DNA of 64,000 nt from NCBI RefSeq assembly GCF_001742165.1, contig NZ_CP016442.1, positions 2,232,001 to 2,296,000 on the forward strand, given 5' to 3'. Shown piece after piece: positions 17,397-61,524 of the stretch. Position 1 is the stretch's first letter. Each line of letters begins with the position of its first letter. The notes below the pieces were generated by a model, which ran no database searches, had not been told where the DNA came from, and worked only from the letters and a program-made list of their open reading frames with translations. A program made the translations under genes and the position numbers. This DNA is from Burkholderia stabilis (GTDB lineage Bacteria > Pseudomonadota > Gammaproteobacteria > Burkholderiales > Burkholderiaceae).

Positions 17397-17408
17397 GGCG
17401 GCCTCCCG

Positions 17409-20602: not shown

Positions 20603-20614
20603 GGCGGCGTCCCC

Positions 20615-26233: not shown

Positions 26234-26247
26234 TGTGCCCTTCCTAT

Positions 26248-27000
26248 TCAAGCCGCCGTATAACCGCCATCTACCACCATGGCGCTGCCGCACATGAAGC
26301 TGGCACCTTCGGACAGCAGGAAGCAGGCTGCGTGGGCGATCTCCTCGGGCCGGCCCAGGCGCCCGATGGCGTGCAGCCCCTTCAGCGCTGCCAGTGTGGC
26401 CTCGTCGAGCGCCTTGAGCAGCGGAGTTTCGATATAGCCCGGATGGAGCGAGTTGATGCGGACGCCCTGTGCCGAATAGGCCAACGCCGCCGAGCGCGTG
26501 AGACCTGTCACCCCGTGCTTGGCCGCGACGTAGGCCGGTGCGTCCGCGCTGCCGACTAATCCCAGGACCGACGACATGTTGACGATGGCGCCGCCGCCGG
26601 CGGCCAGGATGGCCGGGATCTGCGCGCGCATGGCATGCTGCACACCCGAGAGGTTGGTATCGATGACACGTTGCCATTCCTCGGCCGCCAGTTCGCCTGC
26701 AGGCTTGAGTTCTCCGGCAATGCCAGCGTTGTTGAAAGCCAGGTGCAGAGAACCGAAATGCTTGAGTGCGCACTGCACCGCCGCACCGGCGTCCTCGGGT
26801 TTGGCCGCATTGCCCTCGTGTGCCACGGCGCGGCCGCCGGCGGCGATGATGGCCTGTGTCACACGTCGGGCGGCCTCGAAGTCGATGTCGGAGGCAACCA
26901 CCTGCACACCATTTATGGCGAGCAGGTGTGCCGTTGCCTCGCCGATACCCGAGCCGGCGCCACTGACCAGCGCGCTGTCACCTTTGAAGATGTATTTCAT
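26248..27000 (-). CDS. Short-chain dehydrogenase/reductase
   Basis: 250 residues from ATG 27000, which has GGAGG 10 nt upstream; a 12-residue longer form is possible. Classical SDR: cofactor loop GAGSGIGEATAHLLA (~12-26), Asp at the end of beta-2 (ASDIDFEAA) suggesting NAD(H), NNAGIAGEL, catalytic Ser in NMSSVLGLVGSADAPAYVAAK with the Tyr-x3-Lys pair, and the C-terminal GSAMVVDGGYTAA. Substrate cannot be assigned. Together with the LysR gene it may act on an alcohol or keto intermediate, but no link to the aromatic pathway is visible. Confidence 0.88.
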   Translation of the reverse strand: MKYIFKGDSALVSGAGSGIGEATAHLLAINGVQVVASDIDFEAARRVTQAIIAAGGRAVAHEGNAAKPEDAGAAVQCALKHFGSLHLAFNNAGIAGELKPAGELAAEEWQRVIDTNLSGVQHAMRAQIPAILAAGGGAIVNMSSVLGLVGSADAPAYVAAKHGVTGLTRSAALAYSAQGVRINSLHPGYIETPLLKALDEATLAALKGLHAIGRLGRPEEIAHAACFLLSEGASFMCGSAMVVDGGYTAA

Positions 27001-31777: not shown

Positions 31778-32062
31778 ACCTCGTTCGCTGGCACCTCCGT
31801 AGATACCCTGTGTTGTATCGATTCTGTGTGACGGTTGTGCTGACCTGCGTCCTTCGGTTTGTGCCTGGCAGAAGGCGGCGCCCAAACGCAGGAAGCATCT
31901 GGCCGTTTAACGCAGGATGCTTGGGCCGAATTGCGACAGATGACGATCCCGCAGCAGCTCACCTGTAAATGCATTGCTGCAAGGCAGCAATAAAGGCTCA
32001 TTTCTGCCGATGGCACGCGACTTGCTTTGAGATATCAAAACACAGAATCGGAGACACAGGCG
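31778..32062 (+). promoter_or_regulatory. Regulatory region of the phenol operon
   Basis: 285 bp from the IS21 duplication to the dmpK start. It holds a near-perfect sigma-54 promoter (32011-32026) and two inverted repeats that could bind an activator: AAGCATC (31893-31899) with GATGCTT (31916-31922), about 105-130 bp before the transcription start, and ATTGCTGC (31973-31980) with GCAGCAAT (31984-31991) about 55 bp before it. No TTGATCAA-type XylR/DmpR site is apparent, so the binding site is uncertain. Confidence 0.65.
32011..32026 (+). promoter_or_regulatory. Sigma-54 (-24/-12) promoter of the dmp operon
   Basis: TGGCAC (32011-32016), N5, TTGCT (32022-32026) matches the RpoN consensus TGGCAC-N5-TTGCW at every fixed position. 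Predicted start of transcription is near 32037, 26 nt before the dmpK ATG. This is the promoter class used by phenol hydroxylase operons under DmpR-type activators. Confidence 0.93.
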
Positions 32063-44015: not shown

Positions 44016-45518
44016 ATGGCTTTGTTAAATCGGATGGACTGGTACGACCTTGCCAGGACGACTAACTGGTCGCCGAAGTACGTCACGGAGAGCGAGCTTT
44101 TTCCGCCCGAGCTCAGTGGAGATCACGGCATTCCCATGGAAAAGTGGGAGACCTACGACGAACCATACAAGCAGACTTACCCGGAGTATGTCAAAGTCCA
44201 ACGCGAGAAGGACGCTGGCGCGTACTCCGTGAAGGCCGCGCTCGAGCGCAGTCAAATCTATGAAAAAGCAGATCCGGGTTGGCTCACGGTGATGAAGCAG
44301 CACTATGGCGCGATCGCTCTCGGCGAGTACGCAGCCGCGAGCGCAGAGGCAAGGATGATGCGTTTCTCCAAGGCACCGGGCATGCGCAATATGGCGACCC
44401 TGGGAAGTATGGACGAAATTCGTCACGGTCAGATCCAGCTCTACTTTCCTCATGAGCACGTCTCGAAAGACCGTCAGTTCGACTGGGCTGCCAAGGCCTT
44501 CCATACCAACGAATGGGCAGCGATTGCCGCACGTCATTTCTTCGATGACATCATGATGACGCGCGACGCGATCAGCGTCGCCATCATGCTGACCTTCAGC
44601 TTTGAAACCGGCTTCACCAACATGCAGTTTCTTGGGCTGGCGGCAGACGCTGCGGAGGCCGGGGATCACACATTCGCCAGTCTGATCTCGAGTGTGCAGA
44701 CCGACGAGTCGCGCCATGCACAGATCGGCGGTCCAACGCTCCAGATTCTGATCGAGAACGGCAAGAAAGCCGAGGCCCAGAAAAAGGTTGACATCGCTTT
44801 TTGGCGCGCGTGGAGGCTGTTTTCGGTGCTGACTGGGCCGGTGATGGACTACTACACCCCGCTCGAGCATCGCAAGCAGTCGTTCAAGGAGTTTATGCAG
44901 GAATGGATTGTTGCGCAGTTTGAACGCGCACTGAGCGATCTGGGGCTCGACAAGCCTTGGTATTGGGACACGTTCCTGCAGCAGCTCGATCAGCAGCATC
45001 ATGGCATGCATTTGGGCGTCTGGTATTGGCGTCCTACCGTCTGGTGGAACCCGGCAGCCGGCGTCACGCCCGCAGAACGGGATTGGCTGGAAGAAAAATA
45101 CCCTGGCTGGAACGACACCTGGGGCCAGTGCTGGGATGTGATCATCGACAATCTGGTCGACGGGAACATCGCGCAAACGTACCCGGAGACGTTGCCGATC
45201 GTGTGCAACATGTGCAACCTGCCGATCAATTACACGCCGGGCAACGGGTGGGCCGTGCAGGATTATCCGCTCGAATACAACGGCAGGCTGTATCACTTCG
45301 GCTCGGAGCCGGATCGGTGGTGCTTTGAGCAGGAGCCGGAGCGTTATGCGGGCCATATGACTTTGGTGGACCGTTTCCTGGCTGGCTTGGTGCAGCCGAT
45401 GGATCTGGGGGGCGCATTGGCTTACATGGGTCTGGCACCCGGCGAAATCGGTGATGACGCCCACGGCTACTCATGGGTGGACATTTACAAGAAGATGCGC
45501 ATGAAGAAGGCAAGTTGA
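44016..45518 (+). CDS. tbuA1: Toluene monooxygenase alpha (diiron) subunit
   Basis: 500 residues, collinear with TmoA/TbuA1. Diiron ligands by direct count: Glu-104 (GEY), Glu-134 and His-137 (DEIRH), Glu-197 (FSFETGF), Glu-231 and His-234 (DESRH). Pocket residues known to steer regiospecificity are Ile-100, Gly-103, Ala-107, Thr-201 and Phe-205, the same as in toluene 4-/3-monooxygenases. It hydroxylates toluene, mainly to p- or m-cresol. ATG 44016 follows TGGAGAC 7 nt upstream. Intact. Confidence 0.95.
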   Translation: MALLNRMDWYDLARTTNWSPKYVTESELFPPELSGDHGIPMEKWETYDEPYKQTYPEYVKVQREKDAGAYSVKAALERSQIYEKADPGWLTVMKQHYGAIALGEYAAASAEARMMRFSKAPGMRNMATLGSMDEIRHGQIQLYFPHEHVSKDRQFDWAAKAFHTNEWAAIAARHFFDDIMMTRDAISVAIMLTFSFETGFTNMQFLGLAADAAEAGDHTFASLISSVQTDESRHAQIGGPTLQILIENGKKAEAQKKVDIAFWRAWRLFSVLTGPVMDYYTPLEHRKQSFKEFMQEWIVAQFERALSDLGLDKPWYWDTFLQQLDQQHHGMHLGVWYWRPTVWWNPAAGVTPAERDWLEEKYPGWNDTWGQCWDVIIDNLVDGNIAQTYPETLPIVCNMCNLPINYTPGNGWAVQDYPLEYNGRLYHFGSEPDRWCFEQEPERYAGHMTLVDRFLAGLVQPMDLGGALAYMGLAPGEIGDDAHGYSWVDIYKKMRMKKAS

Positions 45519-45533
45519 GCACTGCTGCCTGAA

Positions 45534-45558
45534 GAGCCGGTGGTATGACCACCGGCTC
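45534..45558 (+). promoter_or_regulatory. Intercistronic hairpin between tbuA1 and tbuU
   Basis: Perfect 11-bp stem GAGCCGGTGGT (45534-45544) with ACCACCGGCTC (45548-45558), 3-nt loop ATG. No T tract follows. Likely protects the tbuA1 message from 3' decay or sets relative yield of subunits; position is 28 bp before tbuU. Confidence 0.7.
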
Positions 45559-45586
45559 AACCACCAACCAAACAGAGGACTCCAAA

Positions 45587-45853
45587 ATGGCTTTGTTTCC
45601 CTTGAGCTCCAATTTCGAAGGCGACTTCGTGCTTCAACTGGTGGCGGTCGATACCGAGAACACCATGGACGAAGTGGCGACCGCTGCTGCGCATCACTCC
45701 GTTGGACGGCGTGTGAAAGCGCGTCCCGGGCATATCCTGCGGGTGCGCCGGCAAGGTAGCAAGGAATGTTTGCCCCGAACGATGAAAGTGGCTGATTCGG
45801 GCCTCAAGCCGACCGAGTGTGTTGAGGTCATCTGGGAACCCGCCCAGCAATAA
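45587..45853 (+). CDS. tbuU: Toluene monooxygenase gamma subunit
   Basis: 88 residues from ATG 45587, with AGAGGAC upstream; a longer frame from 45,545 runs through the hairpin and is excluded. MALFPLSSNFEGDFVLQLVA and TMDEVATAAAHHSVGRRVKA are the TmoB/TbuU family. It has a ubiquitin-like fold and is part of the hydroxylase hexamer. Sits second in the operon as in tbu/tmo clusters. Confidence 0.92.
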   Translation: MALFPLSSNFEGDFVLQLVAVDTENTMDEVATAAAHHSVGRRVKARPGHILRVRRQGSKECLPRTMKVADSGLKPTECVEVIWEPAQQ

Positions 45854-45908: not shown

Positions 45909-46244
45909 ATGACATTTAAGAAAGTGTGCTCTCTGGACGATCTTTGGGAGGGCGAAATGGAGTCGTTCGAGGTCGATGGGCAGGAAATTCTGATGGTTTG
46001 GCCGCAGGGCGGCGACCTGAAGGCGTTCCAAGGTATTTGCCCACACCAGGACATTCCGCTCATTGAAGGCAAATTCGACGGCAAGACGGTGATCTGCAGG
46101 GCGCATCTTTGGCAGTTCGATGCCTGCTCTGGAAAAGGTATCAACCCGTCGGACTGTGCGCTGGCCGAGTACCCAATCAAGATCGAAGGCGATGCGGTAT
46201 TTGTGGAAACCGAGGGTGTGAAGCCGCTGTTCGCACATACGTGA
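45909..46244 (+). CDS. tbuB: Rieske [2Fe-2S] ferredoxin of toluene monooxygenase
   Basis: 111 residues. Rieske motif CPHQD (Cys-44, His-46) and CRAHLWQF (Cys-63, His-66), spaced as in TmoC. It carries electrons from the reductase TbuC to the diiron hydroxylase; phenol hydroxylase has no such component, so DmpP could only serve this enzyme if it can reduce TbuB or the hydroxylase directly. Confidence 0.94.
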   Translation: MTFKKVCSLDDLWEGEMESFEVDGQEILMVWPQGGDLKAFQGICPHQDIPLIEGKFDGKTVICRAHLWQFDACSGKGINPSDCALAEYPIKIEGDAVFVETEGVKPLFAHT

Positions 46245-46284: not shown

Positions 46285-46599
46285 GTGACTAAAAACGATA
46301 TTGCATCGGCCCACCTTAACAACAGGGTGGGTCCGGTCATGCGTGCTGGGGAGCTCGCTGAGGCAGTAGTTGAGGCAGCGCGAGAGGACAACCCTGGCAA
46401 GGAAATTCGCGTGGACGACAAGCGCGCCTATTTGCGCATCGACACCGACGGGGAGTTAATCCTGCGCCGCGAAACGATCGAGCGGGCGCTGGGCCGACCG
46501 TTCAAAATGCCTGACCTCGAGGTTGAATTGAGTTCGTTTGCCGGGCGTATTGAAACTATGCCCGATCAGGTCCGCTTCTACTTTGAGAAGCAAGTCTGA
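46285..46599 (+). CDS. tbuV: Effector protein of toluene monooxygenase
   Basis: 104 residues: NNRVGPVMRAGELAEAVVEA, VDDKRAYLRIDTDGELILRR and ETIERALGRPFKMPDLEVEL. This matches the TmoD/TbuV coupling proteins that bind the hydroxylase and raise rate and coupling. AAGGAGA site ahead of GTG 46285. Cofactor-free. Confidence 0.93.
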   Translation: MTKNDIASAHLNNRVGPVMRAGELAEAVVEAAREDNPGKEIRVDDKRAYLRIDTDGELILRRETIERALGRPFKMPDLEVELSSFAGRIETMPDQVRFYFEKQV

Positions 46600-46653: not shown

Positions 46654-47640
46654 ATGTCTGAAGTTCAAGTTCTCAAGCCGCTCAAGACCTGGAGTCATCT
46701 CGCGACGCGGCGCCGCAAACCGAGCGAATACGAGATCGTTTCCACCAATTTGCACTACAACAAGAGGGATCCGAATGCTCCCTACGAGCTCGATCCGGAT
46801 ATGTGGATGAGCCGCTGGTTCAAGCAGCACACCCTCAATAGTCCGCTCAAGCACGACGATTGGAACGCGTTCCGCGATCCGGACGAAGTCATCTATCGCA
46901 CGTACAACCTGATGCAGGACGGCCAGGAGACGTATGTCTTCGGGTTGTTCGACCAGTTCAATTCCCGTGAACATGATAAGTCGCTGGATCCCCGCTGGGC
47001 TGGTAAGCTGGCCCGGCTATATACCCCGGCCCGCTACCTGTTCCACACGCTGCAAATGGCCTCCGCTTACGTCGGCCAGATGGCTCCAGCGAGCACTATC
47101 ACCAACTGCAACTATTTTCAGATGGCCGATTCTTTCCGCTGGTTGAGCCATACGGCCTATCGTACGAAAGAGTTGTCGCTAGCATTCCAGGACAAGGGCT
47201 TTGGTAGCGACGAACGTAAATATTGGGAAGATGACGTCGCCTGGCAAGGCTTCCGTGAGCTTATGGAAAAGGTTCTCGTAACATGGGACTGGGCCGAAGC
47301 GTTTGTGGCGCTCAACCTGGTCGCCAAGCCTGCGGTGGAGGAATCGGTGCTGCGCAAGCTGGGCGAGTCCGGACGCCATAACGGAGATACTTTGCTAGGC
47401 CTGTTGACGGACGCCCAACTCATCGACGCGGCACGTCACAGGCGTTGGGCCACGGCGTTGGTCAAGATGGCGCTCGAAAAGCCAGGTAACGCCGAAGTTA
47501 TCAAGAATTGGATTGCCAATTGGGAATCGCTCGGCGATGCGGCTATCGATGCCTATTGCAGCACGCTTGCCGATGTACCAGACGCCTCGGAGTCGGCCAA
47601 GTCGGCGACTCGAGAGTTTCGTCGATCCCTGGGTCTGTAA
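46654..47640 (+). CDS. tbuA2: Toluene monooxygenase beta subunit
   Basis: 328 residues of the TmoE/TbuA2 family: TWSHLATRRRKPSEYEIVST, NLHYNKRDPNAPYELDPDMW, MSRWFKQHTLNSPLKHDDWN and PARYLFHTLQMASAYVGQMA. Ferritin-like fold without iron ligands, forming the hydroxylase hexamer with TbuA1 and TbuU. A 9-bp stem hairpin (47678-47704) lies between it and tbuC. Confidence 0.94.
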   Translation: MSEVQVLKPLKTWSHLATRRRKPSEYEIVSTNLHYNKRDPNAPYELDPDMWMSRWFKQHTLNSPLKHDDWNAFRDPDEVIYRTYNLMQDGQETYVFGLFDQFNSREHDKSLDPRWAGKLARLYTPARYLFHTLQMASAYVGQMAPASTITNCNYFQMADSFRWLSHTAYRTKELSLAFQDKGFGSDERKYWEDDVAWQGFRELMEKVLVTWDWAEAFVALNLVAKPAVEESVLRKLGESGRHNGDTLLGLLTDAQLIDAARHRRWATALVKMALEKPGNAEVIKNWIANWESLGDAAIDAYCSTLADVPDASESAKSATREFRRSLGL

Positions 47641-47677
47641 GGAAAGACTTCCAGCCGATGCTGTCTCAGGGGACCAT

Positions 47678-47704
47678 CAAGAGCGCCTGGATCACGCGCT
47701 CTTG
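47678..47704 (+). promoter_or_regulatory. Intercistronic hairpin between tbuA2 and tbuC
   Basis: Perfect 9-bp stem CAAGAGCGC (47678-47686) with GCGCTCTTG (47696-47704), 9-nt loop, no T tract. Third example in this cargo of a stem between oxygenase and reductase or subunit genes. Confidence 0.55.
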
Positions 47705-48349
47705 GTGATCTTGACAGCGTAATCACAGGGATTTCATGTATGTCTGAACATCAAATACTCATAGAGGGAGAGAAAAATGCCTTTGTCCAGGCGGGGGAAG
47801 ACACTGTCCTGCGGGCAGCTTTGCGCGCCGGAATAGGATTTCCCTATGAGTGCAACTCGGGCGGGTGTGGCAGCTGCAAGTTTGATCTTCTGGACGGAGA
47901 GGCCGAGAATCTTTGGCCAGACGCGCCAGGGCTGACCGAACGCGATCGCCGTAAAGGTCGTCTGTTAGCGTGCCAATGCAGAGCCAAGGGGAACATACAG
48001 ATAAAGGTGCGCGTCGAGGCGGACCATCAAGCTCAAGTGAGGCCGAAGCGACTGCTGGCCAAGTTTGTGGAATCGCATGAAGTCACCCACGACATTCGCG
48101 AATTTCGCTTTGTGACGGATGGCCCGGCCACCTTCTTGGCGGGACAGTATGCGATGCTTTCGGTCCCTGGTGTGACCGCGCCGCGAGCCTACTCCATGTC
48201 TAACACCGGCAATGATCGAGGCGAGTGGCATTTCCAGATCCGGCGCGTGCCGCAAGGTAAAGCGACAGAGCAGTTGTTCCATCACCTTCGTGCGGGCGAT
48301 CTGACCTGCCCCCTTCGATAGGGCCACGGAGCTTCTAGTAAAGTCCTGT

Positions 48350-49210
48350 TCAAACATGCTCCTGCAAGACAGGAGCGCCTACTGGTGCCGGATGCTTCGC
48401 CGCGAATTCGGCCGGCGACTGGTAGTTCAATGCGCTGTGCGGCCGTGCCTCGTTGTAGTCCCGGCGCCATGCCGACACCACGGCCCGGGCGTGGGCGAGC
48501 GTCGTGAACCAGTGCTCGTTCAGACACTCGTCACGAAACTTGCCATTGAACGACTCGATGTACGCATTCTGCGTCGGCTTGCCCGCCTGAATCAATTTCA
48601 ACGTCACGCCGTTGGCGTAGGCCCACTGGTCCAGCGCGCGGCTCGTGAATTCGGGTCCCTGGTCCGTGCGCAACGCTTTCGGGTAGCCCCTGAAGCGCGC
48701 CACCCGGTCCAGCACGCGCGTCACATACCGACCCGAGATGCCGTGGTCCACCACGATCTCGACCGCTTCCTTGGTGAAGTCGTCGACAATGGTCAGGCAC
48801 TTCAGGCGACGCCCGTTGGACAATGCGTCCATCACGAAATCGAGGGACCACACCTCGTTCGGCGTACTCGGCAAAGCCAGCTGCTCGCGCTCGACCATCA
48901 CGCCGTGGCGCCGTCGCCGGCGCCGCACGGCCAGTCCGGCCTCGCGATACAGCCGGTGCACGCGCTTGTGGTTTACGTGCCTTCCTTCGCGCGCCAGCAG
49001 CGCGTGTAGCCGCCGATAGCCGAAACGCCGCCTCTGGTGCCCCAGCTCGATGAGGCGCGCCTTGAGCGCCTCATTCTCGTGGTCCGGCTGCGCTTCATAA
49101 TGCAGCACGCTGCGCGAAAGCCCGACAAGCCGGCAGGCACGGCGCTCGGAGACATTGACCTTCTGCCGAATCGCCGCGACCGCCTCGCGCCTGGCCTGCG
49201 GGCTCAGGGC
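48350..49210 (-). CDS. IS3-family transposase OrfB (DDE integrase domain)
   Basis: About 285 residues; made as an OrfAB fusion by frameshift from OrfA, so the start is nominal. It has the HTH_21-like region RLVGLSRSVLHYEAQPDHEN, and the catalytic core with EVWSLDFVMDALSNGRRLKC (first Asp), LRTDQGPEFTSRALDQWAYA (second Asp) and NAYIESFNGKFRDECLNEHW (Glu), a full D,D,(35)E set, ending with RPHSALNYQSPAEFA. Confidence 0.93.
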   Translation of the reverse strand, partial: ALSPQARREAVAAIRQKVNVSERRACRLVGLSRSVLHYEAQPDHENEALKARLIELGHQRRRFGYRRLHALLAREGRHVNHKRVHRLYREAGLAVRRRRRRHGVMVEREQLALPSTPNEVWSLDFVMDALSNGRRLKCLTIVDDFTKEAVEIVVDHGISGRYVTRVLDRVARFRGYPKALRTDQGPEFTSRALDQWAYANGVTLKLIQAGKPTQNAYIESFNGKFRDECLNEHWFTTLAHARAVVSAWRRDYNEARPHSALNYQSPAEFAAKHPAPVGAPVLQEHV

Positions 49211-49467
49211 TTTCCCTTCACGACCACCTTCAGGGCTTCCATATCGAGCATCGCCTCGGCCAGCAGCTTCTTCAGCCTCGCGTTCTCGGCTTCCAGCTCC
49301 TTGAGCCGACGGGCTTCCGACACCTCCATGCCGCCGAACTTCGCGCGCCACGTGTAGAACGAGGCGTCACTGAACCCATGCTTCCTGCACAGCTCCTTCA
49401 CCGGCAGGCCCGCCTCCGCTTCCTTCAGGAAGCCGATGATCTGTTCTTCCGAAAAGCGCTTCTTCAT
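49204..49467 (-). CDS. IS3-family transposase OrfA (helix-turn-helix)
   Basis: 87 residues: MKKRFSEEQIIGFLKEAEAG, VKELCRKHGFSDASFYTWRA and a leucine-zipper-like tail LKELEAENARLKKLLAEAML. Binds the IS ends. The frame end overlaps OrfB, where a -1 shift would give the active OrfAB transposase. Confidence 0.93.
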   Translation of the reverse strand: MKKRFSEEQIIGFLKEAEAGLPVKELCRKHGFSDASFYTWRAKFGGMEVSEARRLKELEAENARLKKLLAEAMLDMEALKVVVKGKP

Positions 49468-50065
49468 GTCCGTCTTCCTCTCCGAAAACGGACTTTACTA
49501 GATTCCGACTGGCCCGGTTTACGGGGAGCAGGTCAGATCAACTGGAGATCGATGGACCTTACGGCCTTGCTTTCTTGAGAACGGAGGCCCCACGCGACAT
49601 TGTTTGCGTAGCGGGCGGGTCGGGTCTTGCACCGATGGTGTCAATTGCACGTGGCGCGTCGCAGTCCGGCATGCTGGAAACACGCCATCTCCATTTTTTC
49701 TATGGTGGGAGAACGCCGTCAGACATTTGCGGAGAATCGTTCCTGCGCATGTTACGTGGCTACGACGAACGCATTCATTTTTACCCCGTCGTGTCTTTGC
49801 CGGGTGAGGCCTCCGGATTTCAGTGGAGCGGTGAAACGGGATTTGTTCATGACGTGGTTCGGCGTGTGTTCGGGGATACGCTGTCAAATTTTGAGTTTTA
49901 TTTCGCCGGTCCTCCACCTATGACTCAGGCTCTTCAGGAGATGTTGATGATCGGCTACTGTGTTCCTTTCGAACAGCTTCATTTCGATCGTTTCTTTTAA
50001 TGAAGCGTCCACACGACTTGCGAATTAATGTCAATGCAAGTCTATTAATCAGAGGAGAGTAATCG

Positions 50066-50671
50066 ATGAAACTGTACTACAGTCCTGGCGCTTGTTCGCT
50101 TTCACCGCACATCGTATTGCGTGAAATGGGCTTGACATTCGAGCTCGAAAAAGTGGATCTGCAAAGCAAAAAGACCGAGAGCGGTTCTGACTTTCGCAGC
50201 GTCAACCCCAATGGTTATGTGCCGCTGCTGGTTCTCGACGATGGGCAGGTGCTCACGGAAGGTCCGGCGATCGTACAGTACTTGGCCGATCGGGCTCCCG
50301 AAGCGCGGCTTGCGCCTGAAGCCGGGACGATGGAGCGCTATCGTTTGGTGGAATGGCTAAACTTTATTTCGACCGAGCTTCACAAGGCTTTTGCACCGCT
50401 TTTCAATCCTAAAACGCCGGAAGAATGGAAAGCCATCGTAAATGATTTGATCGCGGCGCGTCTGGCTTATGTTGAAAAAAAGCTCGGTGGTCAGGTCTAT
50501 CTGATGGGAGATAACTTCACGGTTGCTGATGCTTATCTGTTCACCGTGCTGTCTTGGGGCAAGTGGGTCGGCGTAGATATCGGACGCTGGCCGACTTTGC
50601 AGAGCTATACGAATCGAATTTCTTCTCGCCCGACCGTGCAGGCCGCGCTCAAAGCCGAGGGTCTGATCTAA
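50066..50671 (+). CDS. Glutathione S-transferase (bacterial beta class)
   Basis: 201 residues. N-terminal thioredoxin-like domain MKLYYSPGACSLSPHIVLRE with Cys-10, the beta-class catalytic residue, and NPNGYVPLLVLDDGQVLTEG (glutathione site with cis-Pro and Glu-Gly). C-terminal helical domain with DNFTVADAYLFTVLSWGKWV. GSTs are often found in aromatic degradation clusters, where they handle reactive intermediates; here the substrate is unknown. RBS AGAGGAGAG 8 nt upstream. Confidence 0.93.
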   Translation: MKLYYSPGACSLSPHIVLREMGLTFELEKVDLQSKKTESGSDFRSVNPNGYVPLLVLDDGQVLTEGPAIVQYLADRAPEARLAPEAGTMERYRLVEWLNFISTELHKAFAPLFNPKTPEEWKAIVNDLIAARLAYVEKKLGGQVYLMGDNFTVADAYLFTVLSWGKWVGVDIGRWPTLQSYTNRISSRPTVQAALKAEGLI

Positions 50672-50732
50672 CGAAGACCGGTTCTTGTTGCCCCAACTTT
50701 TTCGGAGTTTTGGGGTTCAAGATTTTCCTTTA

Positions 50733-51645
50733 GAGGCCAGTTCAAAAAGGCTGCTCCGTACGCCTGAAGATGTTCCAGCAGACGAGGGCGCAGCCGAATT
50801 TCAAGAATGCTTCGTGAATGTCAGCTCGACGATCGAAGCGTATGCGAAGACGACGGAAGTTTTGGAGCCACGAGTGAGTCCGTTCAACGACCCAACGGAA
50901 TTTGCCCAGACCACTGCCATGTTCAGTGCGGCGCCGTGCGATCACCGGTTTGATGCCGCGTTCGCGCAATCGTTGACGATGCGGATCGGAATCGTAACCA
51001 CGATCGGCATAGATGACCTTGGGTCTCTGAAGTGGTCGGCCGCGCGCGCCACGGATCGGGGGAATCGCGTCGACGAGCGGCAGCAACTGGGTGACGTCGT
51101 TGCGGTTCGCGCCTGTCAGGATGGCGCTGATGGGAACGCCATTGGCGTCTACGAGGATGTGGTGTTTGGAACCGGGTCGCGAGCGATCCGTGGGGTTCGG
51201 GCCAGTTTTTCGCCCGCCCCAACAGCTCGTACCGACGAGGAATCGACGGCAGCGTATGAAAGATCGATCTGCCCGGCCTCGCGCAACTTGTCGAGCAGCA
51301 GTTCGTGCAGTCGATCCCATACGCCTGCTTTGCGCCAGTCGTTCAGTCGTCGCCAGCAGGTCGCGCCGGAGCCAAAGCCCAATACGGTCGGCAGGTGGTT
51401 CCATCGCAGTCCGGTTTTCAACACGAACAGGATGCCATTCAACGCCGCCCGATCCGATACGCGTGGGCGACCAGGATGCCCTTTGCGCCGGGGCTTGGGC
51501 GGCGGCAGTAACGGTTCGATCAGTGTCCACAATTCGTCATCAATAATCGGCGCTTCCATCCCTTGGGTTCCGTTGTTCAGACATCCAAGGTTAACAGCTT
51601 ACCGAGAAAGTAAACAGCCGCCTCAGGGGTTTTTGAACTGGCCTC
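50733..51645 (-). mobile_element. IS5-family insertion sequence between GST and alcohol dehydrogenase genes
   Basis: 913 bp with 16-bp perfect terminal inverted repeats GAGGCCAGTTCAAAAA (50733 onward; reverse ends at 51645). Flanked by TTA on each side (50730-50732; 51646-51648), a 3-bp duplication. Carries a two-frame transposase of the IS427 group. It separates the alcohol dehydrogenase from upstream transcription of the tbu operon. Confidence 0.93.
50742..51559 (-). CDS. IS5-family (IS427-group) transposase read in two overlapping frames
   Basis: The first frame (51559-51149, 136 residues) starts MEAPIIDDELWTLIEPLLPP and carries RWNHLPTVLGFGSGATCWRR and AAVDSSSVRAVGAGEK. The second frame continues with GSKHHILVDANGVPISAILT, KVIYADRGYDSD (Asp) and RWVVERTHSWLQNFRRLRIR (Glu), ending 50742. 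The frames meet at a GCGAAAAACTGG stretch, suited to -1 slippage, which is the normal way this group makes its transposase. So it is probably functional rather than broken. Confidence 0.88.
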
Positions 51646-51728: not shown

Positions 51729-52790
51729 ATGAAAGCCGCAGTCTATTACGGTCCGCAGGATATTCGCTGTACGGATATTCCAGACCCTGTCATTCGCTCC
51801 GACCACGAAATGCTAGTCAAAGTAACGGCCACATCGATATGTGGCTCCGATTTGCACCTTTACCGGGGCGCGCTTGATGGAATCATGGAAAAAGGCAAGT
51901 CCCAAACAGGTCATGAGTTGATCGGCGAAGTCGTGGAGGTCGGTAAGAGCGTCGGGCGCTTCAAGCAGGGGGATCGCGTCAGTATGGGGTACTCAGTCTC
52001 ATGCGGCCACTGCTACATGTGCGAGGTTGGGCAGACCGCACATTGTGAGACTACCAAAAACGCAGTCTATGGATTCGGCATACCTTTCGGCAGCATCAAT
52101 GGAACTCATGCGGAGGCCCTGATCGTCCCTCACGCGGATGGTCACGCGATGAATGTGCCGAAGGGAATTCCCGATGAAGCGGCGGTTACGCTTTCCTGCA
52201 ACCTGCCGTCGGCAATCATCGCCAACCGCCTGGCCGATATCCAGGTCGGGGAGAATGTTGCACTGGTGGGCTGCGGGCCGACGGGTATGATGACTCTCGA
52301 TATCGCGCTGCACAGAGGGCCAGGGCGCGTGGTTGTACTCGATAAGGTTGCCCATCGTCTTGACGTCGTGCGCAAAAAAGGGGGCGTGGCGATTGATGCG
52401 AACCAGGAAGACTGGAAAGAAAAAGCACTGGCAGAAACCGGCGGACGTGGCTTTGACAAAGTGATCGAGGTGGTCGGTTATCCCGAAACCCTACAGATGT
52501 GCCTCGATCTGGTTCGCCCCGGCGGAACGGTTGCCGCGATCGGCGTTTTCTGCGACTCAACTTTCAATCTGAATTTGGCCGATGTGTTTCTGCGCAATAT
52601 CAGCTTGCACATGAATGGCTTCGCTAACGCCCAGCCTTACATGTGGGAGGCATTGCGGCTGATGGAGCGTGGTGTGATCAATCCGCAAGAGTACTTTTCA
52701 CACGCGTTCGAACTTGCTGATGTCGACAAGGCATTCTCGGTCTTTCATCAGAAATCGGACAGCGCAATGAAGGTACTGATCCGGCCATAA
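51729..52790 (+). CDS. Zinc-dependent alcohol dehydrogenase
   Basis: 353 residues of the medium-chain dehydrogenase family. Catalytic zinc: SICGSDLHLYRG (Cys-38 region) and TGHELIGEV (His-Glu). Structural zinc cysteines in CGHCYMCEVGQTAHC. NAD site VALVGCGPTGMMTLDIALHR followed by VVVLDKVAHR (Asp, so NAD). Substrate unknown; benzyl-type alcohols or aldehyde intermediates from methyl oxidation are possible. RBS AAGGAATCC. Separate from tbu transcripts after the IS5 insertion. Confidence 0.9.
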   Translation: MKAAVYYGPQDIRCTDIPDPVIRSDHEMLVKVTATSICGSDLHLYRGALDGIMEKGKSQTGHELIGEVVEVGKSVGRFKQGDRVSMGYSVSCGHCYMCEVGQTAHCETTKNAVYGFGIPFGSINGTHAEALIVPHADGHAMNVPKGIPDEAAVTLSCNLPSAIIANRLADIQVGENVALVGCGPTGMMTLDIALHRGPGRVVVLDKVAHRLDVVRKKGGVAIDANQEDWKEKALAETGGRGFDKVIEVVGYPETLQMCLDLVRPGGTVAAIGVFCDSTFNLNLADVFLRNISLHMNGFANAQPYMWEALRLMERGVINPQEYFSHAFELADVDKAFSVFHQKSDSAMKVLIRP

Positions 52791-52868
52791 AGCTGCTTCG
52801 ACGTAAAGCGAGGGTGAGCGCGAGAACGCTCATACCATTATTAGAAAAAATCTGGTAAGGAGACGAAA

Positions 52869-54263
52869 TTGAAGATCAATCAGAGTTGTGTCGCTGTGCG
52901 GGTGATCGTGGTTTTTTCGGTCGCGTTATTTGCGATGGGCACTGCGAAGGCTACTGACGTGTTCAATCTGGAGGGCTATGGCCCCGTGTCCCGCGCCATG
53001 GGGGGCACAGGCGTGGCGTACGACATTGGCGCGGCCGCCATGATGACGAACCCGGCGACGCTGGGCTTGATGGAGCAGGGGGCCTATCTAGATTTCGGGC
53101 TGGATGTCATCAACACCGATATCAACATACGAAACGCCGCCACCGGTGAATCAGTTTCTTCTGGCAATCACGGCAACAACAACGGCCCCTACTTCGCGCC
53201 CGAAGCCGCATTCGTGTATCGGGCCGGGAAGTATGCATTCGGCGTGGGGGCCTTCGCGGGAGGGGGACTCGGCACGCAGTACGGCGGCAGCAGCTTTCTG
53301 TCGCGCACGACCACCAACGGCATCAACACCGGCTTCGACAATTTTTCGCGTCTCCTGGTGTTGCGCATTCCGTTTGCCATGTCTTACGACGTCACGGACA
53401 AGCTGACGGTCGGCGGCTCGCTCGACGCGGTCTGGACCTCGCTGAATCTCGGCATGCTGCTGGATGCCTCGCAGATCGGTACGCTCGCGGCCCAGCACCG
53501 CGCGTCCGGCACGCTGCTGCCCGCGCTCGCCAGCGTGCCAGGCCTGTCGGGCGGGTATATCAACTCCGCGCATAACGGAATCGTGGGCGGCGGTGCCGAT
53601 GCCTGGGGGATCGGCGGCAAGCTGGGCCTCACGTATCGCCTCACGCCGGACACCGTGTTTGGCCTGGCCTACAACTTCAAGACGCGCGTGGGCGATCTGG
53701 GCGGCCATGCAACGTTGTCGGCAGTAAGTTCCGTTGCCGGAAACATCCCGCTCGACGGTCAGATCACGGTCCACAGCTTCGAAATGCCCGCGCAGTTCAC
53801 GGCAGGTATTAGTCACCGGTTAAACGATCACTGGAGCGTTTCGGCCGACTATCAGCGCGTGTTTCTCGCGAGCGTGTTCAAGGACATCAACGTGAGCTTC
53901 GTGCAGTCGGGCACGGGGGCGAACCTGAACCTGTCGCTGCCGCAGAACTACCGTGACATCAACGTGTTTGGCGTGGGGGCGGAATACCGCTACAACGCGA
54001 GCCTCGCGTTCCGTGCGGGCTTCCATTATGCGCAGGAAGCCATACCCAACAATATGCTGTTGGCCGTCATTCCCGCCATCCCGACCACGACCCTGACCGG
54101 CGGCGTCTCTTATGCGTTCAGCCAAAACAGCAAGATCGACCTCGGCATATCATTCGCACTGCAGAAGACCTTGACGAACACGAGTCAGCCCAACACCTCC
54201 GTGCCGATAAAGGTGACCCACTCGCAGATCAACGCAGCGGTGGCCTGGCAAAAACGGTTTTGA
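52869..54263 (+). CDS. tbuX: TbuX/TodX-type outer-membrane toluene channel (FadL family)
   Basis: 464 residues from TTG 52869, chosen because AAGGAG lies 7 nt ahead and the signal peptide begins MKINQSCVAVRVIVV; cut near GTAKATD (~29). The mature start DVFNLEGYGPVSRAMGGTGV and AAAMMTNPATLGLMEQGAYL is the FadL hatch segment, followed by beta-barrel strands ending GVSYAFSQNSKIDLGISFAL and an AAVAWQKRF C-terminus with terminal Phe. It imports toluene and related hydrocarbons, next to tbuT as in known tbu loci. Confidence 0.93.
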   Translation: MKINQSCVAVRVIVVFSVALFAMGTAKATDVFNLEGYGPVSRAMGGTGVAYDIGAAAMMTNPATLGLMEQGAYLDFGLDVINTDINIRNAATGESVSSGNHGNNNGPYFAPEAAFVYRAGKYAFGVGAFAGGGLGTQYGGSSFLSRTTTNGINTGFDNFSRLLVLRIPFAMSYDVTDKLTVGGSLDAVWTSLNLGMLLDASQIGTLAAQHRASGTLLPALASVPGLSGGYINSAHNGIVGGGADAWGIGGKLGLTYRLTPDTVFGLAYNFKTRVGDLGGHATLSAVSSVAGNIPLDGQITVHSFEMPAQFTAGISHRLNDHWSVSADYQRVFLASVFKDINVSFVQSGTGANLNLSLPQNYRDINVFGVGAEYRYNASLAFRAGFHYAQEAIPNNMLLAVIPAIPTTTLTGGVSYAFSQNSKIDLGISFALQKTLTNTSQPNTSVPIKVTHSQINAAVAWQKRF

Positions 54264-56002: not shown

Positions 56003-57846
56003 ATGAAGGAGGAGAAAGGGAAAGCGGGAGAAATAGACAGAGGAATACCGCTTTTCGTGCCAGATGTAGTGGCTGATCTGCATTTTCCGGACATTCGGGA
56101 TCTGGCGGAACGGCTTCGTTTCAATCCTGCGGACGGTCGCATCTGGCTCGACGATCGTCGAATGGTCTTGATCCATACGGACGCGTTTGCTTCACTGCGA
56201 CAGGAACTCATCGAAGCTTTAGGTAGCGATGCTGCGCGCGGATTGCTGACCCGCATGGGATATCTATCGGGTTCTCGGGATGCCGCGCTCGCACGAAAGG
56301 TTCGCGGGCAAGACAGCGCATTTGATGCCTTCGCGGTAGGTCCTCAACTTCACGCCCTGGAAGGCATCGTCCTGGTAGAACCTGTCAGAGTGGATATCGA
56401 CAGCACCACCGGTCAGTATTACGGGGAATTTCTGTGGAAAGACTCGTCCGAGGATGAGGCTCACATATCCGTGTACGGCATCGGCTCCGAACCAGCCTGC
56501 TGGATGCAGATTGGCTACGCGTGCGGCTACACGAGCGCTTTCATGGGCCGGCGTATTCTATACCGGGAAGTCGAATGCCGCGCGATGGGCAATACATTAT
56601 GTCGAATCATTGGAAAGCCCGTGGACGAGTGGGACGCCCCCGATGCGGATCTTCGGTATATGCTGCCACAATCTCTGGAGAAACGTCGCTTTGTCGCGTT
56701 GAAAAGTTCAGGGCCAGCCCGACTGACTCTACAGATCATGAGTGTGTGCCTTGCAAGCCTGACGAAGTGCCTGTCAAAGAAGGACCAATAGGGGCGTCTG
56801 CTGGATTCAACGCAGTGATGCACAAAATATTCAGAGTGGCTCCCACTAGTGCGACCGTTTTACTGATGGGCGAGAGCGGCGTGGGCAAAAGCCTGTTTGC
56901 TCGGGAACTGCACAACAGAAGTTCGCGTGTAGGGAAACCATTCGTTGAATTAAATTGTGCAGCTCTTCCCGATTCGCTGATTGAATCGGAGCTTTTTGGT
57001 GTGGAGCGAGGGGCATTCACCGGCGCATCCGATGCCCGCGTTGGGCGTTTCGAAAGCGCAAACGAAGGGACCATTTTTTTGGATGAGATTGGTAATCTCA
57101 GTCTAACCGCTCAAGCGAAGCTATTGAGAGTTTTGCAAACGGGGGAGATGGAGCACCTCGGGAGTTCAAAGACGGTTAAGGTAAATGTTCGGGTAATTAC
57201 TGCGACTAATGACAACCTCAAACAGGCGATAAAAAGCGGGCGTTTTCGTGAGGATCTTTTCTACCGGCTGAATGTATTTCCAATTGTTATTCCACCTTTG
57301 CGTGAAAGAAAGGATGATATCCCGGTTTTGCTGGAATTTTTCATAAAGAAATTTTCAAAAAGGCATGGTCGGTCCCTCAAGGGCTTATCCAATCGTGCGC
57401 TTCATCTATTGCTGGATTACTCGTGGCCCGGGAATATCCGCGAGATGGAAAATGTGCTCGAACGTGGCGTTATCCTCGCCGAGGAAGGCGGTACGCTCGA
57501 TGTATGCCACTTGTTTAGTAGCGGTGACACCGTGGAATGTAAGGGTGCTTTTGGTTTAAGCGACCTTGGGTCGCTTGCCCTCGATTCCATATCGACGAGC
57601 GCTCCCCCCGAGACGATCCGCAAGAGCGGAGAAGCCCCGGAGGGGCTCGAGGATTGGGCAGCGCTTGCTGTACAGATGAACAAAGCGACACTTTGCGAGG
57701 TCGAAGATGCGCTCGTACGCGCGGCACTCAAAGCCGCGAACGGGAACATATCAGAAGCCGCACGTCTTCTCGGATTGACACGCGCGCAACTCGACTACCG
57801 TGTCAAGAAGTTGAACAATTCAATGCCAATCTCGACGGAGAAGTAG
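56003..57846 (+). pseudogene. tbuT: Sigma-54-dependent aromatic regulator (TbuT/DmpR/XylR type), frameshifted
   Basis: The first frame (56003-56791, AGGAGGG before ATG) encodes the V4R effector domain: DLAERLRFNPADGRIWLDDR, ARGLLTRMGYLSGSRDAALA, CWMQIGYACGYTSAFMGR, GNTLCRIIGKPVDEWDAPDA. It stops soon after in linker sequence. The -1 frame then carries the AAA+ domain: MGESGVGKSLFARELHNRSS (Walker A), VERGAFTGASDARVGRF (GAFTGA, sigma-54 contact), GTIFLDEIGNLSL (Walker B), and a Fis-type helix-turn-helix NISEAARLLGLTRAQLDYRV. The shift lies between ~56,700 and 56,790 and fits loss of one base. Both halves are otherwise intact, so it is recent, or an error. Confidence 0.88.
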
Positions 57847-58722: not shown

Positions 58723-58986
58723 CCCTTGATTCACCGGACACGGTCTCTGTTTCTGGATGAACCCACTTCAGGGGTAGATCCCATCACCCGGCGCGAATTC
58801 TGGACCCACATCAACGGACTGGCCCGCAAGGGCGTGACCATCATGGTCACCACCCACTTCATGGACGAGGCCGAATACTGCGATCGCGTGGCCATGCTGT
58901 CGGTAAGCGACTCGGCCCGACCGTTTCCCGATGCTGATTTTGCTGGCGCATGATAGTCGCGTTTAGATTGACGGAGACGGTCAGCT

Positions 58987-59409
58987 ATGCCGAATGCAGC
59001 GCGCCCGGCCCATCGCACGTATGCGCGGGCATTCAAACAGCAAGTGATCAGGGAAACGTTGGAACCAGGCATGTCGGTGTCGATCGTCGCGCGGCGGCAC
59101 GACATCAACGCCAACGTCGTGTTCGGGTGGCGCAAGCAATATCGGGAAGGCAAGCTGGAACTGCCGGGACTCGAAGCTGCGCCGTCGGCCATGACAGGCA
59201 CGGAGTTGCTGAGCGTTGACGTGATCGATTCGGTGTTGATGCTGCCAGCGCCGCAGCCTACGGGAAACGCGACGTCGAAGGTGACAAGCGGCGTACCGAT
59301 GCCGACGCCCGTGTGCGAGATCGAGGTGGAGATCGGCAAGCGGCGCGTGAAGATTCGCGGCCTGTCTGCTGAGCGGGCCGAAGCGTTCCTGCAGGAATGC
59401 CTGAAGTGA
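58987..59409 (+). CDS. tnpA: IS66-family accessory protein TnpA
   Basis: 140 residues. N-terminal helix-turn-helix RTYARAFKQQVIRETLEPGM then SIVARRHDINANVVFGWRKQ, as in IS66 OrfA/IS3-like TnpA. Needed with TnpB and TnpC for transposition. Its end overlaps tnpB. Confidence 0.92.
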   Translation: MPNAARPAHRTYARAFKQQVIRETLEPGMSVSIVARRHDINANVVFGWRKQYREGKLELPGLEAAPSAMTGTELLSVDVIDSVLMLPAPQPTGNATSKVTSGVPMPTPVCEIEVEIGKRRVKIRGLSAERAEAFLQECLK

Positions 59410-59750
59410 TCACATTGCCGGCCGGCACCCGCATCTGGCTTGCTGCGGGCGTCACGGACATGCGCTGCGGCTTCCAGGGGCTTGCCACGAAGGTACAGGC
59501 GACGCTCGAGGAGAATCCGTTGTGCGGCCATGTGTTCATCTTCCGCGGACGTCGAGGCGATCTCGTGAAGCTGCTTTGGGCCACCGACGACGGGCTCTGG
59601 CTGCTGTCGAAGCGATTGGAACGCGGCCGCTTCATCTGGCCGCAAGCCGATGGCGGCAAGATCTCGCTCACGGTCGCGCAGTTGTCGATGCTTCTCGAAG
59701 GCATCGATTGGCGGCAGCCCCGCCGTACGGCACCTCTGTCGATGCTGTAG
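59397..59750 (+). CDS. tnpB: IS66-family protein TnpB (Orf2)
   Basis: 117 residues from ATG 59397, overlapping tnpA by 13 bp; a GTG at 59406 is an alternative. It has RIWLAAGVTDMRCGFQGLAT, HVFIFRGRRGDLVKLLWATD and the Leu/Arg-rich WLLSKRLERGRFIWP, fully diagnostic of IS66 Orf2. The exact function is unknown in the family. Confidence 0.95.
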   Translation: MPEVITLPAGTRIWLAAGVTDMRCGFQGLATKVQATLEENPLCGHVFIFRGRRGDLVKLLWATDDGLWLLSKRLERGRFIWPQADGGKISLTVAQLSMLLEGIDWRQPRRTAPLSML

Positions 59751-59789
59751 GTGTTGTAAACCGCTCGGGAGGCTCGTAAACTCCGGCGC

Positions 59790-61382
59790 ATGCCGAATCT
59801 CGACGATCTGCCCGACGATGTCGCTGCACTGAAGGCCATGCTGGCTGAGGCTCGCGCGTCGGCCATCGAACGGGAACTCGAGATCGAACAGCTGCGCCGC
59901 GACATCGCCGCAAGCGATCTCGAGATCACACGGTTGAAGCTCCTGATCGACAAGCTCAAGCGAATGCACTTCGGCCGCAAGTCGGAACAACTTGCCCGAG
60001 AGATCGAGAAGCTTGAGCTCCGGCTTGAGGATTTGGCCGCAGGCAGCGGTGTCGCCGACGTTCAGCACACAAAGGTCCGACGAGAAAGGTCCACGACTAG
60101 CAGCGATCCGGCCGTACGTGAGCCGCTGCCACCGCACCTTACGCGAGAAGATCGCGTGCTCAAACCGGATTCGATCTGCCCCAAGTGTGAAGGTGCTATG
60201 CAGTGCCTCGGCGAGGACGTCTCGGAACAGCTCGCCCGTGTTGCGGCGATGTTCAAGGTGATCCGCACGATCCGGCACAAGACGGTCTGTCCGGCCTGCG
60301 GCCACATCGCGCAGCCACCGATGCCGGGACTGCCGATCGAGCGCAGTATCGCGCATCCGAGCTTGCTTGCCGACATTCTGGTGTCGAAGTACGCAGATCA
60401 TGCGCCGCTGTACCGACAATCGGAAATTGCGGCGCGCGACGGGGTGACGCTTGACCGCGCCAGCATGGGTCGCTGGGTCGGACAGTGTGAGGCGCTCTGC
60501 CGCCCGCTGACCGACGCGCTGCGCCGGTATACGATGGCGGGCACGAAGTTGCACGCGGACGACACGCCGATCCCCGTGCTCGCGCCAGGCAACAAGAAGA
60601 CGAAGACCGGGCGACTCTGGGTGTACGTGCGCGACGACAGCCGTTCGGGCTCGACGGAGCCGGCTGCGGTGTGGTTCGCGTACTCGTGCGATCGCAAAGG
60701 CATCCATCCTCAGACGCATCTCGCCGGATTCGAAGGCATCCTGCAAGCCGATGCCTACGGCGGCTTCGACGAGTTGTACGTAAGTGGCAAGATCCGCGAG
60801 GCTGCTTGTTGGGACCACGCGCGGAGAAAGTACTACGAGATCCACGCGAGCACACCGACGGACGAGACCCAGAAACTGCTCGAGATGATCGGCGAGTTCT
60901 ACGGCATTGAAACCGACATCCGCGGCAAGCCGCCCGATGAACGGCAGCGCGTGCGGCGTGAGAAAAGCAAGCCGCTGCTGGACGCCTTCGAAACGAGAAT
61001 CCGGGCCAAGCTCGCGACGCTGTCGCGCAAGTCGGAGCTGGCCGGCGCGATCCAGTACTCGCTGAATCACTGGACTGCGCTGACGCTGTTCTGCGAGGAT
61101 GGGCAAGCCGAGATCAGCAACGCGTTGGCAGAAAACGCCCTGCGTTGCGTGAGCCTCGGGAGAAAGAACTTCCTGTTCGCTGGTTCCGACAGCGGGGGTG
61201 AGCGGGCCGCCGCGATGTACAGCTTGATTGGTGCGTGCAAACTCAATGGCATCAACCCGCGCGCCTATCTGGAATACGTCTTGACCCACATCGCTGATCA
61301 CGTCATCACCCGCGTCGACGAACTGCTGCCTTGGAATGTGGTCGACAAGCTGACGTCGGTCAGCTCGCATGGCACTGCCTGA
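59790..61382 (+). CDS. tnpC: IS66-family transposase TnpC
   Basis: 530 residues. Coiled-coil start (ALKAMLAEARASAIERELEI), leucine-zipper region and zinc-finger pair CPKCEGAMQC and CPACGHIAQPP (~130-175). DDE core: TMAGTKLHADDTPIPVLAPG (first Asp), LQADAYGGFDELY (second Asp) and EISNALAENALRCVSLGRKN (Glu). C-terminus KLNGINPRAYLEYVLTHIAD. Full length. Confidence 0.95.
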   Translation: MPNLDDLPDDVAALKAMLAEARASAIERELEIEQLRRDIAASDLEITRLKLLIDKLKRMHFGRKSEQLAREIEKLELRLEDLAAGSGVADVQHTKVRRERSTTSSDPAVREPLPPHLTREDRVLKPDSICPKCEGAMQCLGEDVSEQLARVAAMFKVIRTIRHKTVCPACGHIAQPPMPGLPIERSIAHPSLLADILVSKYADHAPLYRQSEIAARDGVTLDRASMGRWVGQCEALCRPLTDALRRYTMAGTKLHADDTPIPVLAPGNKKTKTGRLWVYVRDDSRSGSTEPAAVWFAYSCDRKGIHPQTHLAGFEGILQADAYGGFDELYVSGKIREAACWDHARRKYYEIHASTPTDETQKLLEMIGEFYGIETDIRGKPPDERQRVRREKSKPLLDAFETRIRAKLATLSRKSELAGAIQYSLNHWTALTLFCEDGQAEISNALAENALRCVSLGRKNFLFAGSDSGGERAAAMYSLIGACKLNGINPRAYLEYVLTHIADHVITRVDELLPWNVVDKLTSVSSHGTA

Positions 61383-61524
61383 CTGCTTCATAGATCCAGA
61401 TAGATCGTGCCCATGATCCACGATCGTGGGCACGATCTCACGTGATCCTCACGGAACTCCCCAAGCTCTCACATCATGCCCCATGCGCGCGCGAATATGG
61501 AACTGGTCGCGCCGAGCCGCTTAC
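61383..61524. other. Right non-coding end of IS66
   Basis: Contains a hairpin ATCGTGCCC...GGGCACGAT around 61,406-61,436 and the right terminal inverted repeat ending at 61524. No gene. Confidence 0.6.

What the first reader, a model, noticed from the sequence alone, without database searches (positions are those of the whole stretch)
47740..50000. Toluene monooxygenase reductase gene tbuC knocked out by an IS407-like element at a GATC site
Seen: both halves of the reading frame are intact, the 4-bp duplication GATC flanks the IS, and removing it restores 340 codons. All five other components (tbuA1,U,B,V,A2) are intact. Inference: the strain would lack its dedicated reductase. Phenol hydroxylase reductase DmpP, 11 kb upstream, could cross-feed the Rieske protein TbuB, which would be an unusual hybrid electron chain; otherwise the enzyme is dead and toluene growth is lost.
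Basis: partly seen in the sequence, partly recalled or inferred. Interest (0 to 1): 0.75.

Follow-up and report, generated by a model that had tools for sequence, protein, structure and literature searches.

The report
IS-broken reductase of redundant toluene oxygenase
A jumping DNA element has cut the reductase gene of one of two toluene-oxidising enzymes on a shared catabolic island; the break looks real and recent, but it is an ordinary kind of gene loss, and the island's other toluene enzyme still has its own reductase.

Summary
A 1,234-bp IS3-family (IS407-group) element at 48302-49535, with GATC on both sides, splits a tbuC/tmoF-type reductase gene (47740-50000). At least ten full copies lie in the genome, seven identical, nine with a 4-bp duplication. 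Burkholderia aenigmatica has the same DNA uninterrupted (340 aa; 6,859 and 1,326 identical bases beside the insertion). The other five monooxygenase genes are intact; no second TbuC was found in the genome.

The interpretation needs changing. Toluene oxidation need not be lost, and no hybrid chain is needed. G4 carries the same cluster with the second monooxygenase already deleted.

If this is no sequencing error, it would matter more for toluene growth than the IS. Verdict: real, ordinary decay of a redundant enzyme; a new member of a known kind.

The parts
47740..48321 (+). 5' fragment of tbuC/tmoF/btxU-type NADH:ferredoxin reductase gene (Fer2 and most of the FAD domain), 193 aa, the last 6 residues read from the IS
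48298..48301 (.). left copy of target duplication GATC
48302..49535 (-). IS3-family, IS407-group insertion sequence, 1,234 bp, transposase genes on the - strand
48350..49351 (-). orfB, IS3-family transposase (HTH_21, rve, rve_3)
49204..49467 (-). orfA, overlapping orfB
49536..49539 (.). right copy of target duplication GATC
49540..50000 (+). 3' fragment of the reductase gene (NAD_binding_1 domain)
44016..45518 (+). tbuA1/btxP, alpha subunit of four-component toluene monooxygenase, 500 aa, intact
45545..45853 (+). tbuU/btxQ, gamma subunit (TmoB), intact; 102 aa from the first start (88 aa annotated in relatives)
45909..46244 (+). tbuB/btxR, Rieske ferredoxin, intact, CPH and CRAH motifs present
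46285..46599 (+). tbuV/btxS, effector (MmoB_DmpM), intact
46654..47640 (+). tbuA2/btxT, beta subunit, 328 aa, intact
32011..32026 (+). sigma-54 promoter-like site, 36 bases before tomA0 (one exact match in the window, 0.38 expected by chance; weak by itself)
56003..56791 (+). sensor half (XylR_N, V4R) of the cluster's XylR/DmpR-type activator, in one frame
56521..57846 (+). ORF holding the sigma-54-AAA+ and HTH_8 half of the activator, in another frame

Best explanation
A copy of an IS407-group element, present in at least ten full copies in this Burkholderia genome, recently transposed into the reductase gene of a four-component toluene monooxygenase. It separated the ferredoxin/FAD part from the NADH-binding part. 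Shown: the insertion, its duplication, the uninterrupted allele in relatives, and that a search of this assembly finds no other TbuC. Inferred: the allele is null and the four-component enzyme gets no dedicated NADH electrons. Because the same island carries a complete TOM-type toluene 2-monooxygenase with its own reductase, the lost enzyme was largely redundant; the break should narrow substrate range and product pattern rather than abolish toluene attack by itself (inference). The same second enzyme was lost by a different lesion in B. vietnamiensis G4. The only XylR/DmpR-type activator found in the genome is also split here, which suggests that the whole pathway is decaying under relaxed selection (inference).
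For: IS boundaries, ends and GATC duplication; 10 full copies, 7 identical (this one included), 3 one base shorter; duplication in 9 of 10; one open frame over both halves in 67 of 80 related loci, uninterrupted 340 aa in B. aenigmatica and in P. aromaticivorans BN5 pBN2; identical DNA for 6,859 and 1,326 bases beside the insertion; no other TbuC found in the genome; both halves fall in the TmoF clade, the four best other reductases of the genome do not (weaker matches were not put in the tree); TOM operon open and 96.6-100% identical per protein to G4; Btxm1 makes o-cresol and Btxm2 all three cresols in E. coli (PMC10394343 section 17); G4 pBVIE04 keeps only a 5' piece of tmoA, with an IS4-family transposase close by.
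Against: No expression or growth data. Raw reads cannot be seen, so neither the IS nor the one-base difference in the activator could be checked against reads. One IS copy (L008) lacks a duplication. That the fragments are inactive is inferred from domain layout.
Confidence: 0.88

Rival explanations
1. Hybrid electron chain: the reductase of the upstream TOM-type enzyme (TomA5/'DmpP') reduces the orphan Rieske protein TbuB, so the four-component enzyme still works.
For: TomA5 is intact and in the same gene array, has the same three domains and is 32-33% identical to TbuC. Use of foreign reductases in such systems is reported: the T4MO reductase reduced IsoC, and T4MO components served the Xanthobacter Py2 enzyme (PMC9004368 section 8). 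Leaving out the added T4MO reductase did not lower activity in a Rhodococcus lysate (PMC9004368 conclusions, passage), though that lysate came from a strain with its own reductase gene.
Against: TOM/phenol hydroxylases are three-component systems without a Rieske protein (recalled; no Rieske gene is annotated among tomA0-A5 in G4). TomA5 lies outside the TmoF clade. In PMC9004368 section 8 the four-component T4MO reductase reduced IsoC, but the reductase of a three-component system did not, at similar sequence identity. 67 of 80 related loci keep an open reductase frame beside the oxygenase (one of these, L071, runs off its contig); 12 of the other 13 end before the gene would end at the usual spacing (with the lengths and match positions), and the thirteenth has a TmoF-like protein elsewhere in its genome.
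Confidence: 0.07
2. Dead enzyme and loss of toluene growth, caused by the IS alone.
For: No other TbuC found.
Against: The TOM-type operon is complete and its counterpart Btxm1 hydroxylates toluene. B. vietnamiensis G4, a classic toluene degrader (recalled), has lost the same second monooxygenase.
Confidence: 0.08
3. The IS or the junction is an assembly artefact.
For: Ten near-identical copies are the kind of repeat that assemblers confuse.
Against: The assembly has three contigs and is 100% complete by the tool's estimate. Nine copies have their own 4-bp duplication, nine different words. The flanks match an uninterrupted relative base for base.
Confidence: 0.03
4. The two fragments are made separately and reassemble into a working reductase.
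For: Both halves are open and carry their motifs (CNSGGCGSC in Fer2; GGSGLAP in the NAD part) (motifs recalled).
Against: The FAD domain is cut before its end (profile positions 3-86 of 99). The first start in frame in the 3' half is TTG. No sigma-70-like promoter match was found in 47600-50700, although outward promoters are reported for IS407-group elements (PMC3281130 section 21).
Confidence: 0.01

Closest known systems
btx gene cluster of Cupriavidus cauae PHS1 (btxA-O, btxPQRSTU, btxV, IS, adh, btxW; PMC10394343)
   Same: Same gene order and the same protein lengths for most genes, including 340 aa for btxU and an IS between gst and adh (Table 3); trb/traG genes on the same island.
   Different: PHS1 has an uninterrupted btxU and a further IS between btxI and btxJ that the window lacks (window spacing). 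The PHS1 sequence itself was not compared here.
Paraburkholderia aromaticivorans BN5 plasmid pBN2 (NZ_CP022992.1)
   Same: 99.3% DNA identity over 16.5 kb up to the insertion point.
   Different: Reductase (340 aa) and activator (614 aa) both open; on a plasmid, not on contig C1 of 3.89 Mb.
Plasmid pBVIE04 of Burkholderia vietnamiensis G4 (CP000620.1; that it is the TOM plasmid is recalled, its 107 kb fits the 108 kb given in PMC10394343)
   Same: TOM operon, meta pathway, hydrolase and activator region about 98% identical; second monooxygenase lost.
   Different: G4 lacks the whole tmo-gst-adh-tbuX stretch; an IS4-family element stands about 0.2 kb from the break, so its part in the loss is not shown (PMC6449761 calls it possible). 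Here only the reductase is cut, by an IS407-group element. G4's activator is annotated as one CDS of 611 codons.
IS407-group elements on Burkholderia and Mycetohabitans plasmids
   Same: Six full-length matches, one annotated as IS407 family, the others as IS3 family or not at all.
   Different: 80.5-83.2% identical, so a separate element of the group.
T4MO reductase TmoF (PDB 4wqm)
   Same: The uninterrupted relative matches it over residues 17-340 (E 2e-68).
   Different: The gene here is split.

Membership tests
IS3 family, IS407 group | IS3-type DDE transposase | tested here: met
   NF033516 transpos_IS3, 261 bits against a cut-off of 160; rve and rve_3
IS3 family, IS407 group | two overlapping ORFs with programmed frameshift | tested here: inconclusive
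   orfA and orfB overlap; the slippage itself was not tested
IS3 family, IS407 group | 4-bp target duplication (4 bp in three of the four IS407-group rows shown from PMC3281130, 2 bp in one) | tested here: met
   9 of 10 copies
IS3 family, IS407 group | about 1.2-1.27 kb (the four rows) with related inverted ends | tested here: met
   1,234 bp; both ends begin TGACCTGC and share CTAGTAAAGTC; 15 of the first 26 bases agree without gaps
TbuC/TmoF reductase of four-component monooxygenases | Fer2 - FAD_binding_6 - NAD_binding_1 in this order | tested here: met
   found on the two pieces apart
TbuC/TmoF reductase of four-component monooxygenases | clade with reductases that lie beside tmo/tbu genes | tested here: met
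   both pieces inside the group of 66 TmoF-like rows, support 100/99 (long branches warned of)
TbuC/TmoF reductase of four-component monooxygenases | single open frame | tested here: not met
   split by the IS; hence a broken member
TOM-type toluene 2-monooxygenase | six-gene operon close to tomA0-A5 of G4, all open | tested here: met
   96.6-100% per protein, no stops
TOM-type toluene 2-monooxygenase | o-cresol from toluene | not testable with these tools
   shown in print for Btxm1 only
XylR/DmpR/TbuT sigma-54 activator | XylR_N, V4R, sigma-54 AAA+, HTH_8 in one frame | tested here: not met
   all domains present but in two frames; one frame of 607-614 codons in B. aenigmatica and C. udeis and in BN5 and G4

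The most novel reading that the evidence does not exclude
The island has been rewired rather than killed. The split in the activator frees the AAA+/DNA-binding half from the sensor half, as in DmpR lacking its sensory domain, which is active without effector (PMC7264223, passages). The IS has removed the redundant second monooxygenase. The result would be a natural strain with constitutive TOM. Against it: the break (residue 239; V4R ends at 205) probably lies past the linker, the sensor-less DmpR in that paper kept its linker, and the start codons available to the second half have no clear ribosome site.
Probability: 0.05. Interest if true: 0.5.

Novelty: new member of a known kind. Interest (0 to 1): 0.27.

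Why it matters
It is a clean snapshot of pruning of a mobile catabolic island by insertion sequences soon after it spread. The same second monooxygenase has been lost on at least two copies of this cluster by different lesions (here and in G4), which suggests that TOM makes it dispensable. For bioremediation surveys it is a warning: a strain scored as carrying tbu/tmo genes may lack that activity, yet still attack toluene by TOM, or be silent if the activator is really broken.

Tried and rejected
Second TbuC in the genome: none found; the next-best are TomA5 (33%), C1:3517756 (32%), C2:2343558 (31%) and C3:891422 (30%, BenC by NCBIfam above its cut-off); weaker matches were not followed. IS-borne outward promoter: no sigma-70-like match in 47600-50700, which does not exclude one. 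IS shared with B. aenigmatica: no match at E <= 1e-100 there, with only 6 of 219 candidate places scored; 12 of 65 genus genomes (this one included) have a match, those outside this genome at 77-83% in the rows shown. A relaxed sigma-54 pattern gave 11 matches against 18.6 expected, so no enrichment. A natural cluster without a reductase (L084): its genome has a TmoF-like protein elsewhere (50%). Literature on an IS in tmoF/tbuC: the titles and abstract starts listed (15 of 19 papers shown) showed no such report; two of the ten answered searches used IS407 by name; the library holds open-licence papers only. Papers seen: PMC9004368 passages and section 8; PMC10394343 outline, passages and sections 6, 13, 14, 16, 17, 21; PMC6449761, PMC7264223 and PMC4814904 passages; PMC3281130 passages and section 21. 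Recalled, from no call: that B. vietnamiensis G4 grows on toluene, that pBVIE04 is the TOM plasmid, that TOM and phenol hydroxylases are three-component systems.

Full report
Observation. The window lies in a three-contig, 8.53-Mb genome at C1:2232001-2296000. The genus listing that includes this genome holds B. aenigmatica LMG 13014 as 'same genus': G004:C45:13796-14815 fits, by contig number and coordinates, the place of L011:13725-14744. ORF 47740-48321 carries Fer2 and most of FAD_binding_6; the frame ending at 50000 carries NAD_binding_1. Between them lies 48302-49535, with GATC on each side. On the minus strand it holds an IS3-family orfB (48350-49351; NF033516, 261 bits against a cut-off of 160) overlapped by orfA (49204-49467). 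Both ends begin TGACCTGC. Six plasmid records match the element over its whole length at 80.5-83.2%; one is annotated as IS407 family.

Not chance, and unlikely to be an artefact. Ten full copies were found in the genome (only 40 of 228 candidate places were scored, so ten is a lower bound): seven identical, this one included, and three of 1,233 bp. Nine of ten have their own 4-bp duplication; L008 does not. B. aenigmatica L011 has the gene in one frame of 340 codons, identical to both halves. The DNA beside the insertion is identical for 6,859 bases on the left and 1,326 on the right. The scan for the alpha subunit found 152 relatives, of which the best 80 were kept. Of these 80, 67 have one open frame over both halves, one of them (L071) running off its contig. 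Of the other 13, 12 end before the gene would end at the usual spacing (lengths and match positions). The thirteenth, L084, has no reductase found on its 15-kb locus but a 50% identical one elsewhere in its genome. An uninterrupted dedicated reductase is thus the rule.

What was lost. tbuA1, U, B, V and A2 are open and identical in DNA to B. aenigmatica; the Rieske motifs CPH and CRAH are present. Among the other reductases of the genome none is a TbuC by similarity. In a tree of 89 rows, both halves fall with 66 TmoF-like proteins (support 100/99). TomA5 falls with the phenol-hydroxylase reductases, and three other reductases of the genome lie apart. The program warns of long branches, and 2 of 17 DmpP-like rows fall elsewhere. 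The break lies before the end of the FAD domain (profile positions 3-86 of 99). A null allele is the natural inference.

Why toluene attack need not be lost. The 15 genes from tomA0 to the tautomerase are open here, 96.6-100% identical to G4. The published counterpart in Cupriavidus cauae PHS1, a cluster of the same gene order, has two monooxygenases: in E. coli Btxm1 made only o-cresol from toluene, Btxm2 all three cresols; btxABCDEF are reported over 98% identical to TomABCDEF of G4 (PMC10394343, sections 14, 16, 17 and Table 3). The same paper speculates that Btxm2 does most of the first hydroxylation and Btxm1 mainly the second, so the loss of Btxm2 may slow growth. Btxm2 corresponds to the enzyme broken here. 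In G4 the match to the window stops at 44479 and resumes at 54515: only the first part of tmoA remains, and an IS4-family transposase stands about 0.2 kb away. PMC6449761 also notes this loss and calls transposases a possible cause (passages). The second enzyme has thus been lost on at least two copies of the cluster, by different lesions.

Hybrid chain. It is not excluded, but it is not needed and is unlikely. PMC9004368 (section 8) reports that the reductase of four-component T4MO reduced the Rieske protein IsoC, while the reductase of a three-component system did not, although both are about equally similar to the native reductase. TomA5 is of the three-component kind (recalled). On the other side, the same paper found that leaving out the added reductase did not lower activity in a cell lysate (passage); the lysate came from a strain with its own.

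A second lesion. The cluster's XylR/DmpR-type activator has its sensor domains in one frame (56003-56791) and its AAA+ and HTH_8 domains in another (56521-57846). The window is one base shorter than both B. aenigmatica and P. phenoliruptrix near 56.7 kb; the longest run of one base in the 35 bases around is four. Relatives have one frame: 614 codons in B. aenigmatica, 607 in C. udeis, 614 in BN5 and 611 in G4. It is the only XylR_N match found in the genome (30 of 30 candidates scored). The one exact sigma-54-like site in the window, 32011-32026, stands 36 bases before tomA0; 0.38 were expected by chance and a relaxed pattern showed no enrichment, so it is weak by itself. If the split is real, the TOM operon may be uninduced, or constitutive if the C-terminal half is made alone: DmpR truncates lacking the sensor domain are active without effector (PMC7264223 passages). 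That paper's sensor-less form kept its linker, which the half here probably lacks. A sequencing error cannot be excluded without reads.

History. The cluster is shared almost unchanged by B. aenigmatica, P. phenoliruptrix, BN5 and, in part, G4. Conjugation genes of Trb/TraG type lie at 15.7-24.8 kb, as reported for the PHS1 island. Compared with the B. aenigmatica copy, this copy also has an IS66-family element at 58903-61524 with an 8-bp duplication. The picture is a recently spread island being pruned by insertion sequences (inference).

Verdict. Observation confirmed; interpretation partly supported; an ordinary mechanism with an informative parallel. Interest 0.27.

Noticed in passing
56003-57846: XylR/DmpR-type activator split over two frames; the only XylR_N match found in the genome; in one frame in four relatives.
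   Followed up: partly
58903-61524: IS66-family element with 8-bp duplication, absent from the matching B. aenigmatica stretch.
   Followed up: partly
50733-51645: IS5-family element between gst and adh; shared with B. aenigmatica, an IS is listed at this place in PHS1, missing at this place in P. phenoliruptrix L012 and BN5 pBN2.
   Followed up: partly
52000-54000: 125 of the 131 mismatches to B. aenigmatica right of the IS fall here (adh end and tbuX-like porin), a sign of a recombined tract.
   Followed up: no
15700-24777: TrbL, TrbE, TraG-type conjugation genes on the minus strand with a LysR gene beyond (25289-26773); looks like an integrative conjugative element carrying the cluster; its ends were not found. 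8.5 kb of this region is found twice (91% and 86%) in the P. phenoliruptrix genome and only in scraps in B. aenigmatica.
   Followed up: partly
L109:11125-12324: B. aenigmatica's copy has an extra insertion of about 1.2 kb with a 4-bp duplication that the window lacks.
   Followed up: no
L115:27717-29453: pBVIE04 of B. vietnamiensis G4 keeps only the first third of tmoA; an IS4-family transposase stands nearby; about 10 kb present in the window is missing there.
   Followed up: yes
L008: IS copy at C2:3062721-3063953 without a target duplication, perhaps a product of recombination between copies.
   Followed up: no
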